Positions 38,714 through 44,853 of a stretch of 64,000 bases of DNA are shown here, in pieces. A program made the position numbers and the translations under genes. The DNA is from Rubritalea squalenifaciens DSM 18772 (GTDB lineage Bacteria; Verrucomicrobiota; Verrucomicrobiia; Verrucomicrobiales; Akkermansiaceae): the NCBI RefSeq assembly GCF_900141815.1, contig NZ_FQYR01000004.1:310001-374000 (forward strand). Reading direction: 5' to 3'. Within the stretch, counting starts at the first letter, position 1, and each line of letters begins with the position of its first letter. Below the pieces are notes generated by a model. It worked only from the letters and a program-made list of their open reading frames with translations, had not been told where the DNA came from and did no database searches.

Positions 38714-39676
38714 TCAGGAGTTGAGGAACTCCAGCACCCGGGCCTCGGCCCAATTCTGCCTTTGCCAGGGACTGCCGAATCCCACGTGCCCGCCCTGGCG
38801 GGTCACCTCCAGATAGAAGTGCTCGCTCCGGAGTGCCTCCTCATGGGGATAGCATCGCTCGCCGAGGAAGGGATCATTCGCCGCCTGCACCAGCAGGGTG
38901 GGGATGCGGATGTTTTCGATGAATGGGCGCGAGCTGCAGCGCTCCCAGTACTCCCGCGCATCGCGGAAGCCATGCAGGGGCGCCGTGTAGGCATCGTCAA
39001 ACTGTTGAAAAGTTTCCATACGCAGCCCGGCATCGTGCTCGGGCAGCCCGGGGTGCAGCTCCCGCTTGTGCTCCACCTTCTCCATCAGGCTGCGGAGGAA
39101 GCGCCGCATGTACAGTTTCCGGTTCCACCAGGACTCCAGGCTCTTGGACGAGCAGCTCAGATCACAGGGCACGGAGAAAGTCACCGCCCGGTGCAGCTGC
39201 GGCGGCAGTTTTTCTCCCAGTTCGCCCAGCAGCTTGAGCGTGATGTTTCCCCCCAGGCTGAATCCCACCAGATCCACCTGCTTGGCAGGGTGCGTGGCCA
39301 GCGCATGATCCAGCACCCGCTTCAGGTCGTCGCTCACCCCGCTGTGGTAGAAGCGCATCAGCCGGTTCATCTCGCCACTGCAGCTGCGGAAGTTCCAGGC
39401 CAGCACATCCCAGCCCGCCTGCCACAGCGCCTCCGCCATCGCCTGGACGTACATCACCTTGGAGGAACTCTCCAAGCCGTGGGAAAGAATTGCCAGCTTG
39501 CCGCGGCCCTCGCGCCGCCAATCCAGATCCAGAAAATCCCCGTCCTCCAGCTCCAGCCTCTCCCGCTCCCTCGTCACCAGCCTTGGCCTCCTCAGCACCG
39601 CCGGAAGGATCGTCTGCAAATGCCCCCCCGGCATCCACCAAGGCGACTGATAAGCAGAACGTTCAACAATCGGCAT
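38714..39676 (-). CDS. YheT-type alpha/beta hydrolase
   Basis: A 320-residue cytosolic protein of the YheT/COG0429 type (esterase- or lipase-like, true substrate unclear). Key blocks: QSPWWMPGGHLQTILPAVLR, FLDLDWRREGRGKLAILSHG, LAWNFRSCSGEMNRLMRFYH, nucleophile elbow VGFSLGGNITLKLL, acid region VQAANDPFLGERCYP, and catalytic His in TRQGGHVGFGSP. The length is normal and the triad seems complete, so it is probably active. A second, broken copy of its first ~25 codons is at 40725-40802. Its start is 4 kb or less from several insertion remnants. Confidence 0.93.
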   Translation of the reverse strand: MPIVERSAYQSPWWMPGGHLQTILPAVLRRPRLVTRERERLELEDGDFLDLDWRREGRGKLAILSHGLESSSKVMYVQAMAEALWQAGWDVLAWNFRSCSGEMNRLMRFYHSGVSDDLKRVLDHALATHPAKQVDLVGFSLGGNITLKLLGELGEKLPPQLHRAVTFSVPCDLSCSSKSLESWWNRKLYMRRFLRSLMEKVEHKRELHPGLPEHDAGLRMETFQQFDDAYTAPLHGFRDAREYWERCSSRPFIENIRIPTLLVQAANDPFLGERCYPHEEALRSEHFYLEVTRQGGHVGFGSPWQRQNWAEARVLEFLNS

Positions 39677-39830
39677 ACCCTATGCCTTACTGCGCGGAAG
39701 AAGGAAGGGCAAGGGTAAGGTGGGGGAGGTAAATTTCAACAGGACGATGAAACGCGCTGTTCTGGACGCGCATCTGTTTGGTTCACGACAGGATGACCAA
39801 CTATAGCAAGGTATGGACACACAGACCTCT
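39594..39830 (+). repeat. Long direct repeat, copy A (hydrolase start + IS3 transposase fragment)
   Basis: About 230 bases nearly the same as 40725-40980. It holds the first ~28 codons of the YheT gene (reverse strand) and, beyond them, a forward-strand fragment of an IS3-type transposase (39735-39806, FNRTMKRAVLDAHLFGS, then broken by an internal deletion). Confidence 0.85.
39735..39806 (+). pseudogene. IS3-family transposase fragment (copy A)
   Basis: Forward frame reads FNRTMKRAVLDAHLFGSRQD then a stop. It matches the C-terminal transposase piece at 40860-40988 but lacks about 30 bases of it. It is a dead remnant. Confidence 0.7.
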
Positions 39831-39909
39831 CCCTCAGTCACCTCGTTCTCGTGATGAAGAGCCTGTGAATGGTGGCGAGCCAGTTTCATAGTTTTTTTTC
39901 CCGGGCACT

Positions 39910-40626
39910 CTATCTCGTTAGCGTGTGACGGCATTTCGGATAGGCTGAGCATCCCCAGAATGTTTGTCCGGAATTTGGTCCGCGCTTCGCCATACGTTCA
40001 AGCATCGGACTACCGCATCGTTCACACGCAGGTGCAGTCTCGGCGTCCGCTTGGTTTCCCTCGGCATAGGCTTCCTCGTTGATTGGAGTGGAATCAGTCG
40101 TCCCCAGAGGAGAAGGTGGAGATGATTCTGCTTGTGGATCCATGGAGAGGTGTGGCGCAAGCTGGAGGCGTATCTGTTCCGGGTTATAGGCTCTCGCTGC
40201 CGGGATACGAATCAAGGGAAGCCCGGCAGTCACAAAGACTTGATCGACAAAGGTGTCACGTGCCTGCCTGTCTGGCTTTTGGTGTGATGCATCATCCAGT
40301 TCAATGGCGACGAGTGGATTCATCGTGGCTGTGTCGCAGATGACGAAGTCGATATGCTTCTGACTGATCTTACCACGGGCACTCAAGTTGATGTGCGGCT
40401 GCCGGACGAAGAATAGGTCGGCCAGATTGACCTTGGTGAGTAGGTGGTGATCGGGAGAGAGGGTATTGCGAACGACATGGAAAAATGAAATCTCAGCGTG
40501 GCTGAGGAAGTCGTCACGCCTTGCATAGGGAAGTTCTTCTTGAGCAGAGGCATCTACAGCTTTCCTACCAAGAAAAGGTGCGAGTAGTATACCAAGGCAG
40601 CCAGATTTATTCTCGTTAGCGGGCAT
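39910..40626 (-). CDS. DUF2726 nuclease-like protein with topoisomerase-type zinc ribbon
   Basis: A 238-residue protein. The N-terminal part holds a helix (FLSHAEISFFHVVRNTLSPD) and the DUF2726 core: LLTKVNLADLFFVRQ, KHIDFVICDTATMNPLVAIE, LDDASHQKPDRQARD, LPLIRIPAARAYNPEQIRLQ. The DFxxxD…hAIELDDxSH pattern is that of a restriction-endonuclease-like fold. After a low-complexity linker (residues ~165-200) comes a single zinc ribbon: CERCGSPMLERMAKRGPNSG, FWGCSAYPKCRHT (zf-C4_Topoisom type). The gene is bracketed by the long repeat and is the whole content of that insertion. Possible role in DNA processing or defence; unproved. Confidence 0.85.
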   Translation of the reverse strand: MPANENKSGCLGILLAPFLGRKAVDASAQEELPYARRDDFLSHAEISFFHVVRNTLSPDHHLLTKVNLADLFFVRQPHINLSARGKISQKHIDFVICDTATMNPLVAIELDDASHQKPDRQARDTFVDQVFVTAGLPLIRIPAARAYNPEQIRLQLAPHLSMDPQAESSPPSPLGTTDSTPINEEAYAEGNQADAETAPACERCGSPMLERMAKRGPNSGQTFWGCSAYPKCRHTLTR

Positions 40627-40724: not shown

Positions 40725-40802
40725 GCCACCGGCAAGATCGTCTGCAAACGCCCCCGGCATCCACCAAGGCGACTGATAAGCAGAACGTTCAACAAGCGGC
40801 AT
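40725..40802 (-). pseudogene. Broken 5' end of the YheT hydrolase gene
   Basis: The reverse strand reads MPLVERSAYQSPWWMPG, which matches the first 17 residues of the gene at 39676, then shifts frame (AFADDLAGG in place of GHLQTILPA). It is a duplicated gene start without a gene body. Confidence 0.8.
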
Positions 40803-40980
40803 ACCCTATGCCTTACTGTGGGGAAGTAGGAAGGGCTAGAGTAAGGTGGGGGAGTAAGTTTCAACAGGACGATGAGACGCGCTGTTCTGGACGCGCACCT
40901 GTTCGGTTCAATGACGGAGGTTCGTGACATGGTCCACGTCTGGATGACCAACTACAGCGAGGAATGGATACACAGAACGC
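40725..40980 (+). repeat. Long direct repeat, copy A' (hydrolase start remnant + IS3 transposase fragment)
   Basis: Similar to 39594-39830 (by eye about 88-90 %), with indels including a ~30-base stretch missing from copy A. Its distal half is the intact end of the transposase. Confidence 0.85.
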
Positions 40981-40988
40981 TCAACTAA
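40860..40988 (+). pseudogene. IS3-family transposase C-terminal fragment
   Basis: The forward frame reads FNRTMRRAVLDAHLFGSMTE, VRDMVHVWMTNYSEEWIHRT, LN and a stop. The pattern (hxDxxLFxSxxEVRxxVxxWxxxYxxxxxHxxL) is that of the end of the IS3 OrfB catalytic domain, including the final conserved Glu region. No upstream transposase remains, and the IS ends are not identifiable. Confidence 0.75.
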
Positions 40989-41006: not shown

Positions 41007-41225
41007 TCATTTTAATCTACCCCCTTGGCGGGGAAGTTTACACGTCCAAATCATATCGGGGTTTGAGGCTATCAATGAACGATCCATCGCCCTGTGATGA
41101 TTCTTACAGAGGGCGATGCCGTTACGTGGGTGGTCATCTTGGCTTTCGGCAAAAGGAATGATGTGGGCGGTATCGACAACGGTATGGCCTCCTGGGAGGC
41201 GAATACGTAATCCACAGGGGGCCAC
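41007..41225 (-). pseudogene. HNH endonuclease fragment
   Basis: The reverse frame contains VDTAHIIPFAESQDDHPRNG, IALCKNHHRAMDRSLIA, which is the HNH signature (AHI…N G xxLCxxHHxxxD) of McrA-type and other restriction-like endonucleases. The frame is closed upstream (TGA at about 41320) and the N-terminal part of such proteins is missing. It is therefore a remnant, not a full gene. The GTG at 41225 may be an artefactual start. Confidence 0.65.
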
Positions 41226-41241
41226 CGATTCACCTGAATGA

Positions 41242-41505
41242 AACTGGTTGGAAGCCCTGAAAGCGGGGCTTGTGGACTCATCGACCGAAATTTCAGAAAT
41301 AACAGGATTTTCATCGGGACGGGTGCGTCAAATTATCAGATTGATCAATTAACCACCTGAAATCCTTGCCCACTTCAAGTCTTTGGAGGGGGCAAAATCG
41401 TTAAGGGGCTTCTCAGAAAACAAGCTGAGAAGGATTGTTGCGATGAAGTCAGAGGATAAGCTGGAATATTTTGAGAGTGCTTTCGGGGTCAAAATCAGGG
41501 GCTAA
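41242..41505 (+). pseudogene. Remnant of a recombinase-associated HTH gene (in-frame stop)
   Basis: The forward strand reads NWLEALKAGLVDSSTEISEI, TGFSSGRVRQIIRLIN, a TAA stop, then PPEILAHFKSLEGAKSL, RGFSENKLRRIVAMKSEDKL, EYFESAFGVKIRG and a final stop, all in one frame. The EIxxxTGxSxGRVxQIIxLI…PEIL…LxxxxLRxI pattern resembles the small HTH proteins often found beside site-specific serine recombinases. The internal stop and the missing N-terminus show that it is dead. It overlaps the upstream end of the HNH fragment on the other strand. Confidence 0.5.
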
Positions 41506-41520
41506 CTTGGTTCACTCGGT

Positions 41521-43221
41521 TCAACGAGTGAAACCAAGCACTTCCTGTTCAGGATCGTAAATTTCATAACCCATGGAGGAATAACCTTTCATCCGTTTTC
41601 TGAACATAGAGGCAAACATAGGAGCATTATCATCCACAATATCCTTTACGGCTCCCTTACGATTGAGACTTTGGATGATGGCAATATCAACTTTCTTTGT
41701 TGGCTTATTCTTTCCTCCGCCAATTTGACCAATTTCTTTGGGATCAATGTCCAGAAATGTTGAAATGCGGGCTTTCCATTGATCTAGGAGCTGTCTGCGA
41801 TGCACGATAATGAGAGTATTTGTTTTTCTCCGCGCGATGATATTTGCCGCTACGACTGTTTTACCAAAAGCAGTTGCTGCACAGATGATACCCTCGTCAT
41901 ATTTCATTACCGCTCTGACAGCTCTTGTTTGATCCGAACGAAGCTCTCCTTGGAATTTTATACTAAGAGGTTCTCCCCCAAAGCGTTTGTCTTCTGTTAA
42001 TACCTTTATCTCGTGAGTTTCGCAAAGTGTTTGGAGATCTTGAAGGCAACCACGGGGTAGAGCAATATGCTCAGAAAAATCCTCAGCACGGTGGACAAGC
42101 CGAGGTATGTTGGAGGTGGAAAATTTCATCGCCTGAGCTTGGTAGAATTCCGGATTATGAAATGCAGCAAGACGAATGATCCTGTTGATCAGAGCTGGAG
42201 GTAAGCTGGCTTTTTCAATGAAGAGCAGATTTGCCCGAATTGCTTTCACCTCTTCAGGCAGAATGCCGTCCAATGGTTCAGAGCAAAAATGCTCGGAAGG
42301 TTTTAGCTCCCAAGGTCTCTCAATTTTATCTCCATCTTCAAATCGATGACGCAGTCCGAGGAGATCTCCTGAAATATTGGCGACAATATCTTCAATCTGA
42401 AACGCAGTCATTTTTCTGACACCACCCAGATAAGCCCACTGGTCCTCGTAAGGAGTAAGATTTCGGTCAATGAAGACGCTACCTCCTTGTTGCCTTGGAA
42501 TTTTTTGTAATGGTAATGCAATGAGGTTGCCGAAGCCACCTTTGGGCAAGGTGTCCTGGCTGGGAAAAAATCGGTCATAGGAATCAAGCCCCATTTCGGG
42601 ACGTGATTCCATGGCATGGGTTAGGATCGCCGATCCCAGTTTACGAGCAAGTGAAGATTGAATAGGTTCACGAAAGAAAATCCACACGTGGCCTCCATTT
42701 CCGGAGCGTGATCGTTCCAAAGATGCAGAAACCCCCAAAGCATCGCATGAATTCAAAAACGCTAAACAGTCTTGTTGCCAAGATTTCTTGTCAAAATCAG
42801 CAGCAAGAAACCAACACCTGTCATCTTCTAAAATAGCGTATATTCCCATCGTGATCTTACCACTGAGGTGGTTGTGGATTACATGATTATCGACAGGTAA
42901 ATACTGCCGTTCCTCCTTGGGCACAACTTCTCCCCAGTTTCTGTGATAGACAGGTGCATATCCGGCAGTGCCTTTCTGAGGGTTTTCCCAGCGAACGGAA
43001 TAAACATCTTCCCGTCCACGAAAGAGTTGTCTGAAAAATTTGACCTTCTCATCTGAAGAAGAATGATTGTCTATAGACGAAGCACAGGTTTTATGCGGAG
43101 GCTGGGCTGTTGTCTTGGATTGGTAGTGGTTCAATTGCCTGTGAAGATCAGAATTTTCCTTCGTCAGACGTTTACACTCGGCTTCGAGCTCACGAATTCT
43201 GGCTTTTAATGGCTCGAACAT
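41521..43221 (-). CDS. TOTE-type AEP primase-helicase, internally deleted
   Basis: A 566-residue protein. Residues 1-35 are a coiled coil; residues ~60-290 form an archaeo-eukaryotic-primase (AEP) domain of the kind found in TOTE conflict systems, with the catalytic DxD (D142-F-D144) and the SGNGGHVWIF histidine (H178) intact. Residues ~415-530 are the start of a superfamily-2 helicase with Walker A AATAFGKT (448-455) and VHRRQLLDQW. At residue ~530 the chain jumps to APMFASMFRKRMKGYSSMGY, which is normally the far C-terminal tail. The DEAD/H box and all C-terminal helicase motifs are missing (the family is usually about 900 residues). It lies 18 bases behind the Fic gene, in one operon. Confidence 0.85.
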   Translation of the reverse strand: MFEPLKARIRELEAECKRLTKENSDLHRQLNHYQSKTTAQPPHKTCASSIDNHSSSDEKVKFFRQLFRGREDVYSVRWENPQKGTAGYAPVYHRNWGEVVPKEERQYLPVDNHVIHNHLSGKITMGIYAILEDDRCWFLAADFDKKSWQQDCLAFLNSCDALGVSASLERSRSGNGGHVWIFFREPIQSSLARKLGSAILTHAMESRPEMGLDSYDRFFPSQDTLPKGGFGNLIALPLQKIPRQQGGSVFIDRNLTPYEDQWAYLGGVRKMTAFQIEDIVANISGDLLGLRHRFEDGDKIERPWELKPSEHFCSEPLDGILPEEVKAIRANLLFIEKASLPPALINRIIRLAAFHNPEFYQAQAMKFSTSNIPRLVHRAEDFSEHIALPRGCLQDLQTLCETHEIKVLTEDKRFGGEPLSIKFQGELRSDQTRAVRAVMKYDEGIICAATAFGKTVVAANIIARRKTNTLIIVHRRQLLDQWKARISTFLDIDPKEIGQIGGGKNKPTKKVDIAIIQSLNRKGAVKDIVDDNAPMFASMFRKRMKGYSSMGYEIYDPEQEVLGFTR

Positions 43222-43239
43222 GACTTCACTCCAGCAATT

Positions 43240-44286
43240 TTATGGGGCCACCTTGTAGCGTGTGGATCTTCCTTTCCCTTCAAGAATAAGCAGACGTTTA
43301 TCGACCAGAGAAGAAAGTGTTCTTTTCATTGTGTTTCTGTTGGAATCCGTCAAAGCAACCATTTCACGGTTACTCAAACTATTGTGCTGCTCAAAAAGTG
43401 ACAGGATTTCAAGTGCCAGAGGAGATAAGTCACTCGCCTGCATGATGCGATGGTCTTCCACTTTCCGAGCTAGAACCTCGCATTGTTTTGACAAAGTCCG
43501 CAGGAAGAAGACGATCCAAGCGTTCCAGTCTGGCGTAGTCTTAAATGATGTTTGCGTTGTTCTCAACGCTCTGTAATAGCTGTCTTTATTTTCTTCAATA
43601 ATCCTCTCAATCGAGGCATATGGAACATACTCATACCCTGATTGAAGCAGAAAAAGTGTGGTGAGTGCCCGCGAAAGTCTGCCGTTTCCATCTTGGAAAG
43701 GGTGGATTGCTAGAAACCGGACAATAAAAACACCAATCCTCAGCAAAGAGTGAAGCTCATTGGACTGCCGCGTAGCTAGCTCCCATGCAAGGAGTTTCTT
43801 CATGTGTGCAGGAGTGTCGAAGGGGCTTGAAGTCTCAAAGACAATGCCTATCTGCTTACCATCGGGGTCGAAGGCTGCGACATGGTTATCCAGAGTTTTG
43901 TATGCTCCTCGATGGCGTTCATCCTTTGTAGAGTGTACTAACAAAGTCGAGTGTAGCTGAAGCAAATGATTTTCATCTACATTGAGAAATTCCCAAGAGT
44001 CAAAGATCAGATCCATGACCTTGGCGTAACCAGCGACTTCCTGTTCATCCCGGGAAGTGAATTTCTCAATTTCAATGTTAGCCAGCAGGGTTTCCACCTG
44101 AGCATCAGACATTTTGGAGCCTTCGATCCTTGTGGATGAACCCACACTCTCAATGGTGGCTGTTTTTCTGAGTTGTGTCAGACGATCACGGTCAATAGCT
44201 CCCAATGCCTGCCAACGTCCCTTGAACTCATCAATCGAAGCGATCAACTGGAGGATTTCTGGTGTGATATTAACTGTGACTTCCAT
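43240..44286 (-). CDS. Fic family protein (class II, with winged-helix C-terminus)
   Basis: A 348-residue Fic protein, which usually attaches AMP to target proteins. The active-site motif HPFQDGNGRLSR is complete (H195 to R203). The inhibitory motif SxxxEG (S51-T-R-I-E55-G) lies in the N-terminal helix, so it is an autoinhibited class II form. Residues ~285-345 look like a winged-helix (LSNREMVALTDSNRNTMKRT, LSSLVDKRLLILEGKG), which suggests autoregulation or DNA binding. It is the first gene of an operon with the primase-helicase. No antitoxin gene is near; the inhibitory helix is part of the protein. Confidence 0.93.
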   Translation of the reverse strand: MEVTVNITPEILQLIASIDEFKGRWQALGAIDRDRLTQLRKTATIESVGSSTRIEGSKMSDAQVETLLANIEIEKFTSRDEQEVAGYAKVMDLIFDSWEFLNVDENHLLQLHSTLLVHSTKDERHRGAYKTLDNHVAAFDPDGKQIGIVFETSSPFDTPAHMKKLLAWELATRQSNELHSLLRIGVFIVRFLAIHPFQDGNGRLSRALTTLFLLQSGYEYVPYASIERIIEENKDSYYRALRTTQTSFKTTPDWNAWIVFFLRTLSKQCEVLARKVEDHRIMQASDLSPLALEILSLFEQHNSLSNREMVALTDSNRNTMKRTLSSLVDKRLLILEGKGRSTRYKVAP

Positions 44287-44402
44287 GATGAACCATTAAA
44301 TGACCCAATTATGCCCAAATAAACTCTATAATCAAGAGTTCAGCAGCGAAAAGAGGTTGTTACGGAGAAAGCAGGTGTGAGCTTCGTAATTGTAGGTAAA
44401 AA

Positions 44403-44507
44403 GGAATAAATTGGCCATTGAAACAAATGAAACTGATCCAGCGACGCGCCTACGGATTTAGAAACTTCGAAAACTACCGGCTGCGGGTCATCGCCCAATG
44501 CGGATAA
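44403..44507 (+). pseudogene. ISL3-family transposase C-terminal remnant
   Basis: The forward frame reads PLKQMKLIQRRAYGFRNFEN, YRLRVIAQCG and a stop. The block KLIxRRAYGFRNFxNYRxRV is the characteristic end of ISL3-type (DDE) transposases. No upstream part remains. Sequence after the stop, ending near GGTGTAGACCC, could be an inverted-repeat end of the element. Confidence 0.75.
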
Positions 44508-44584: not shown

Positions 44585-44604
44585 ATGGCGGGCCGGGAGG
44601 GATT
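44585..44604 (+). repeat. 20-bp copy of the tRNA-Ser 3' end (att-like site)
   Basis: An exact copy of 44763-44782, which holds the CCA end, the acceptor stem and part of the T stem of tRNA-Ser(GCU). Such copies arise when elements integrate at tRNA 3' ends. Confidence 0.8.
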
Positions 44605-44757: not shown

Positions 44758-44763
44758 TGGAAA

Positions 44764-44853
44764 TGGCGGGCCGGGAGGGATTCGAACCCTCGATACCGTT
44801 TCCGGTATACTCCCTTAGCAGGGGAGCGCTTTCGACCACTCAGCCACCGGCCC
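44764..44853 (-). tRNA. tRNA-Ser(GCU)
   Basis: A 90-base class II tRNA on the reverse strand. Acceptor GGGCCGG pairs with CCGGCCC, followed by G and an encoded CCA. The anticodon stem CTCCC/GGGAG carries loop CTGCTAA, giving anticodon GCU (serine, AGC/AGU). A long variable arm (TACCGGAAACGGTA) is present as expected for serine. The T loop GTTCGAATC is intact. It lies at the right end of the disturbed region, and its last 20 bases are repeated at 44585. Confidence 0.97.

What the first reader, a model, noticed from the sequence alone, without database searches (positions are those of the whole stretch)
41521..44286. Fic + TOTE-type primase-helicase operon with the helicase centre deleted
The two genes are 18 bp apart on one strand. 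The primase domain keeps its DxD (142-144) and H178; the helicase keeps Walker A but jumps from about residue 530 straight to the extreme C-terminal tail, losing the DEAD/H box and the whole second RecA domain. The join is in frame, which is unusual for a decaying gene. A Fic protein as partner of a TOTE-type primase is a pairing that I do not know as a described system.
Basis: partly seen in the sequence, partly recalled or inferred. Interest (0 to 1): 0.75.

Follow-up and report, generated by a model that had tools for sequence, protein, structure and literature searches.

The report
Toxin gene paired with truncated primase-helicase
A mobile two-gene unit, a Fic-type AMP-transferring toxin followed by a primase-helicase, belongs to a recurring arrangement in which this primase-helicase is preceded by interchangeable toxin genes; this particular copy has lost most of its helicase by one ordinary in-frame deletion.

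Summary
A Fic gene (43240-44286, -) is followed after 18 bp by an AEP-TOTE primase/XPB-like helicase gene (41521-43221, -). Compared with five close relatives the helicase lacks exactly 231 codons (motif II through RecA2) and keeps its C-terminal tail in frame. The missing part is nowhere else in the genome. No relative shares the junction, so the short form is a single deletion that leaves a dead helicase; the primase domain stays as conserved as in relatives.

The pairing is not chance. Nine of 152 AEP-helicase loci (window included) have a Fic gene within about 200 bp on the same strand, eight upstream and one downstream. These Fics are polyphyletic, so they were captured repeatedly. The commoner partner at the same place is AbiEii nucleotidyltransferase, in six inspected loci within an AbiEi-AbiEii-AEP/helicase operon; the window's closest AEP relatives have it. 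So toxin modules are swapped in front of one primase-helicase. Where tRNA genes lie nearby, 20 of 21 point their 3' end at the operon, as here (tRNA-Ser), indicating a mobile island.

Known parts in a combination I found undescribed in the open-access papers searched. The defence role is inferred, not shown.

The parts
43240..44286 (-). Fic/AMPylase gene, 348 aa, Fido domain plus C-terminal winged helix; HPFQDGNGR motif and class II inhibitory motif S51-T-R-I-E55-G56 intact
   Evidence: PADLOC SoFic 9e-46; best solved relative 8uqu, 5e-31
41521..43221 (-). AEP-TOTE primase-helicase gene with internal in-frame deletion, 566 aa
43114..43218 (-). N-terminal helix (residues 2-36), probably coiled coil, found in relatives
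42388..43050 (-). AEP primase-polymerase domain (residues 58-278), catalytic D142, D144, H178 kept; fold of CAPP
41635..41946 (-). remnant of helicase RecA1 (residues 426-529): Walker A and motif Ia only
41629..41640 (-). deletion junction (about residues 528-531, KDIV|DDNAP): 231 codons missing against relatives
41524..41634 (-). retained C-terminal tail (residues 530-566), homologous to the last residues of full-length relatives; model confidence below 50
41505..41539 (-). strong hairpin overlapping the stop codon, possible terminator without a T run
   Evidence: z -5.6
44764..44853 (-). tRNA-Ser(GCT), 3' end facing the operon; likely integration site
44585..44604 (+). 20-bp direct copy of the tRNA-Ser 3' end (other copy 44763-44782), att-like repeat
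41100..44500 (.). low-GC block (about 0.45 against about 0.55-0.63 on both sides) holding the operon

Best explanation
This is a horizontally acquired conflict operon at a tRNA-Ser site: a self-inhibited Fic AMP-transferase (toxin-type effector) made together with a CAPP-like primase-polymerase fused to an XPB-like helicase. It is the Fic version of a wider arrangement in which the same primase-helicase follows an interchangeable toxin module (most often AbiEi-AbiEii; also Fic, sometimes PIN or HEPN). Proposed working of intact members: the primase-helicase engages foreign DNA or stalled forks, and the linked toxin modifies a host target if that fails. In the window copy one deletion removed helicase motif II through RecA2, so ATP-driven unwinding must be lost, while the Fic and the primase domain look intact. 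Shown by sequence: the parts, the deletion, the recurrence, the swapping, the tRNA context. Inferred: the defence role, functional coupling of the two proteins, and that the truncation is recent decay.
For: Pairing recurs: 9 same-strand adjacent Fic loci including the window. Fic at the adjacent position is enriched over other ORFs of the same loci with the window left out (7 of 84 against 7 of 724, p 1.9e-4; with ORFs of at least 200 aa, 7 of 57 against 7 of 378, p 8e-4), AbiEii far more (18 of 84 against 2 of 724, p about 5e-17). Linked Fics fall in about 7-8 separate lineages. The AEP tree places the window in a clade mostly preceded by AbiEii; its sister L089 has an AbiEi/AbiEii-like pair. 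Fic remnants beside L210, L211 and L212 show replacement in place. tRNA 3' ends face the operon in 20 of 21 cases, p 2e-5. The primase domain departs from the consensus at 2 of 77 conserved columns, equal to the mean of relatives.
Against: Most AEP-helicase loci have no recognisable toxin neighbour, and the window Fic's nearest relatives (50-59% identity) stand alone, so functional dependence is not shown. No experiment links this primase-helicase subfamily to phage defence; plasmid copies sit with transposases and integrases. The Fic count is modest and 'adjacent' includes gaps up to 200 bp.
Confidence: 0.55

Rival explanations
1. The primase-helicase is a replication or maintenance module of the integrated element, and the Fic or AbiE gene is an addiction (toxin-antitoxin) cassette that stabilises the element; no immune function.
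For: tRNA 3' ends face the operons; plasmid copies neighbour integrases and transposases; another AEP supergroup (PrimPol-PV1) lies in tRNA-integrated elements (PMC5862659); AbiEi-AbiEii is a known type IV toxin-antitoxin pair.
Against: No integrase lies next to the window operon; the toxin is tightly and repeatedly linked to this one gene rather than to an integrase; a Thermus PrimPol encoded with a helicase in an integrative element was not needed for replication of the element but lowered DNA uptake (PMC7693054).
Confidence: 0.28
2. The truncated protein is a functional, selected helicase-less primase-polymerase that works with the Fic.
For: The join is in frame; the primase domain is conserved as in relatives and modelled with high confidence.
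Against: No other genome searched has this form; the remnant and tail show no confident packing (residues 518-566 below pLDDT 50); a recent deletion explains the same facts.
Confidence: 0.12
3. The Fic lies next to the primase by chance.
For: Closest Fic relatives are solitary; most AEP-helicase loci have no Fic.
Against: Eight other same-strand Fic neighbours, enriched even within the same loci.
Confidence: 0.06
4. The deletion is an assembly or strain-mixture artefact.
For: No reads are available; some other metagenome copies of the gene are frameshifted.
Against: Exact 231-codon in-frame junction on a 723,705-base contig; the missing part is not found elsewhere in the genome.
Confidence: 0.08

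Closest known systems
AEP-TOTE primase domain (PF22548) and TOTE conflict systems (TPR, OB, TBP, Effector)
   Same: The primase domain matches the Pfam family at 6e-90.
   Different: No TPR, OB or TBP gene beside it; the partner is a Fic gene.
CRISPR-associated primase-polymerase (CAPP, Marinitoga, PDB 7nqd/7nqe/7p9j)
   Same: Closest solved relative by sequence (1e-15) and by fold; the same catalytic D-x-D and H.
   Different: No cas gene among the neighbours scanned; here fused to an XPB-like helicase.
XPB/XPBII (Rad25-type) SF2 helicases
   Same: The helicase part of full-length relatives aligns with XPBII (about 1e-24).
   Different: In the window only the first part of RecA1 and the tail remain.
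SoFic, anti-phage AMPylating toxin
   Same: PADLOC SoFic model 9e-46; Fido domain with C-terminal winged helix; N-terminal inhibitory motif.
   Different: Closer to 8uqu than to SoFic structures; the E. coli SoFic studied has a 47-aa downstream antitoxin (PMC12249575), here the primase-helicase follows.
AbiE (AbiEi-AbiEii) type IV toxin-antitoxin
   Same: Occupies the same upstream position in the window's closest AEP relatives.
   Different: A single Fic gene stands there in the window.
Thermus ICETh2 PrimPol plus helicase
   Same: PrimPol encoded with a helicase in an integrative element; lowers uptake of environmental DNA (PMC7693054).
   Different: I did not test sequence relatedness; no Fic partner is mentioned in its abstract.

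Membership tests
TOTE conflict system | AEP domain of the TOTE family | tested here: met
   PF22548 6e-90
TOTE conflict system | accompanying TPR, OB (cold-shock) and TBP proteins | tested here: not met
   genes scanned between about 36.2 and 48 kb are PDZ, sigma factor, hydrolase, DUF2726, HNH_2, MarR, laccase-type, GHMP kinase or without a match
CAPP | AEP catalytic residues and fold | tested here: met
CAPP | encoded with CRISPR-Cas | tested here: not met
   no cas gene among the neighbours; CRISPR arrays were not searched for specifically
active SF2 helicase | motif II (DEAD/H) and second RecA domain | tested here: not met
Fic AMP-transferase, class II | HPFxDGNGR motif and N-terminal (S/T)xxxE(G/N) inhibitory motif | tested here: met
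   S51-T-R-I-E55-G56 read directly from the translation
SoFic defence toxin | anti-phage activity by AMPylation | not testable with these tools
   needs experiment
SoFic defence toxin | small antitoxin gene directly downstream (AS1 type) | tested here: not met
   the next gene starts 18 bp later and is the primase-helicase
AbiE type IV TA | AbiEi and AbiEii genes | tested here: not met
   no such gene beside the window operon; AbiEii and AbiEi present beside AEP relatives such as L055, L063, L110 by Pfam

The most novel reading that the evidence does not exclude
CAPP-like primase/XPB-like helicases are the shared sensor-controller of an unnamed, widespread family of tRNA-borne abortive-infection operons whose toxin module (AbiE nucleotidyltransferase, Fic AMP-transferase, PIN, HEPN) is exchanged freely, the primase-helicase restraining or triggering the toxin according to the state of DNA replication.
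Probability: 0.3. Interest if true: 0.75.

Novelty: new variant of a known kind. Interest (0 to 1): 0.5.

Why it matters
If the linkage is functional, a primase-polymerase/helicase would be coupled to several unrelated toxin chemistries, two of which (Fic and AbiEii) transfer nucleotides. That points to a common trigger at DNA and makes the role of AEP-TOTE proteins testable in a simple two- or three-gene operon. It also warns against reading the window's short form as a designed variant: it is a deletion derivative of such an operon.

Tried and rejected
Second deletion (loss of the Cys cluster near residue 100): rejected, most of the window's subclade lacks it. Recurrence of the short form: not found; L110 ends at 586 aa after motif III with no downstream remainder and L107 at 625 aa, both at other points, while L060, L125 and L166 look frameshifted. 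Missing helicase part elsewhere in the genome: no. One co-inherited Fic-AEP pair: rejected, linked Fics are polyphyletic. Empty site in the genus: not resolved, the flanking hydrolase is only 42% identical in two genomes and no tRNA lies near it. Viral contigs gave only three relatives, one with Fic (L198). Phage records gave only weak partial matches. Literature: no paper found on Fic or AbiE with AEP-TOTE helicases in open-access searches.

Full report
OBSERVATION. The two genes lie on the minus strand exactly as described: Fic 43240-44286 (348 aa), an 18-bp gap, then a 566-aa primase-helicase at 41521-43221. Pfam finds Fic (3e-15) in the first and AEP-TOTE (6e-90, residues 58-278) plus only the first two thirds of the ResIII helicase model in the second. 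D142, D144 and H178 are invariant among up to 39 relatives, and the Walker A GKT at 453-455 is kept. The Fic has HPFQDGNGR and an N-terminal S-T-R-I-E-G that fits the class II inhibitory motif. The operon sits in a low-GC block (about 0.45 against about 0.55-0.63 around it).

THE DELETION. Full-length relatives are about 790-830 aa, or about 935-1010 aa with a C-terminal DUF559 (nuclease-type) domain. The window protein follows them to about residue 529 and resumes at their last residues. The spacing between the conserved blocks QSLxRK..V.D and KRxxGY is 245 aa in five close relatives and 14 aa in the window: 231 codons, in frame. The whole-genome search shows the tail (residues about 520-564) as a separate match about 660-700 bp downstream in many relatives. 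The lost part includes motif II and all of RecA2. A full-length query finds only this place in the genome, matching as far as its residue 540. None of 388 genomes of the phylum or 396 of a second phylum shows the same short form; other incomplete copies end elsewhere. I conclude that this is a single deletion in this lineage; the in-frame join needs no special cause (one chance in three). The primase domain departs from the consensus at 2 of 77 highly conserved columns, the average of 138 relatives; the helicase remnant at 3 of 33, slightly high but within their range. The AlphaFold model is confident for the primase domain and below 50 for residues 518-566; its primase part matches CAPP (7nqe, E 5e-14) and its helicase remnant XPBII (5tnu).

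THE PAIRING. Among 152 AEP-helicase loci gathered, a same-strand Fic gene lies within about 200 bp in nine: the window, L073, L082, L102, L146, L172, L177 and L198 upstream, L120 downstream. With the window left out, Fic makes 7 of 84 immediately upstream same-strand ORFs against 7 of 724 other ORFs of the same loci (p 1.9e-4; p about 8e-4 to 9e-4 with ORFs of at least 200 or 250 aa). The comparison inside the same loci controls for these being defence or mobile islands. The linked Fics are scattered over the Fic tree (8 label changes for 9 rows), and the window Fic's nearest relatives (50-59%) are solitary. So the pairing arose repeatedly; it is not one inherited pair.

THE WIDER PATTERN. The commonest adjacent gene is AbiEii nucleotidyltransferase: 18 of 84 against 2 of 724 (p about 5e-17), and 14 of 46 adjacent upstream genes by Pfam. 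In six of the AbiEii loci inspected (L055, L057, L058, L063, L070, L074) the order is AbiEi-like gene, AbiEii, AEP-helicase; AbiEi was confirmed by Pfam in L055, L063 and also L110. PIN (2) and HEPN (1) also occur. The AEP tree puts the window in a clade lacking the Cys cluster in which AbiEii is the usual partner, with L089 as sister, itself preceded by an AbiEi/AbiEii-like pair (support 88/77, and both branches are long, so this placement is moderate). In L210 a remnant of an L177-like Fic precedes the present Fic, L212 has a fused Fic remnant upstream and an intact Fic downstream, and L211 carries a window-like Fic fragment downstream. The toxin module therefore appears to be exchanged in place.

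MOBILITY. A tRNA-Ser lies upstream of the window operon with a 20-bp copy of its 3' end 180 bp further in. Across all loci with a detectable tRNA, 20 of 21 have the tRNA 3' end facing the operon (sign test 2e-5), as expected for elements integrated at tRNA 3' ends.

MECHANISM. Shown: domain content, catalytic residues, the deletion, recurrence, exchange, tRNA context. Inferred from family knowledge: Fic transfers AMP to proteins and SoFic is an abortive-infection toxin (PMC12249575); AbiEii is a nucleotidyltransferase toxin; PrimPols start and extend primers, and one encoded with a helicase in a Thermus element lowers DNA uptake (PMC7693054). I think it most likely that these are conflict operons in which a DNA-engaging primase-helicase is combined with a toxin. 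The main rival is a mobile-element maintenance unit with an addiction cassette; present data do not separate the two. In the window the helicase must be inactive, while Fic, self-inhibited and elsewhere solitary, may still act alone.

KNOWN OR NEW. The parts are known. 'TOTE' means TPR, OB, TBP, Effector (PMC12458937); the window has only the primase domain family and none of the other three, so it should not be filed as a TOTE system. I found no paper on Fic or AbiE with these primase-helicases, but only open-access text was searched. I rate it a new variant of a known kind.

Noticed in passing
window 39598-39831 and 40726-40982: A diverged direct repeat (about 83-94% identical in pieces) holding the promoter side and first codons of the alpha/beta hydrolase gene flanks a DUF2726/zinc-ribbon gene (39910-40626), as if an insertion duplicated the target.
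   Followed up: partly
window 41007-41225: A 72-aa HNH_2 nuclease fragment just downstream of the operon.
   Followed up: no
window 41505-41539: A very stable hairpin overlaps the stop codon of the primase gene (z -5.6).
   Followed up: no
L139 1-2541: A close relative of the window Fic overlaps a gene with a NACHT/AAA ATPase domain, another possible Fic partner.
   Followed up: no
L211 71-4258: A PIN-domain gene, Fic and AEP-helicase follow one another on one strand, with a window-like Fic fragment downstream.
   Followed up: partly
L110 3651-8932: AbiEi, AbiEii and a 586-aa AEP-helicase that stops after motif III, then a further co-directional gene: a second, differently truncated form.
   Followed up: partly
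152 AEP-helicase loci: tRNA genes near these operons point their 3' ends at them in 20 of 21 cases.
   Followed up: yes
G000 contigs C2, C3, C7: Three further, distant Fic genes in the same genome (28-30% identity), none beside an AEP gene found by the search.
   Followed up: no
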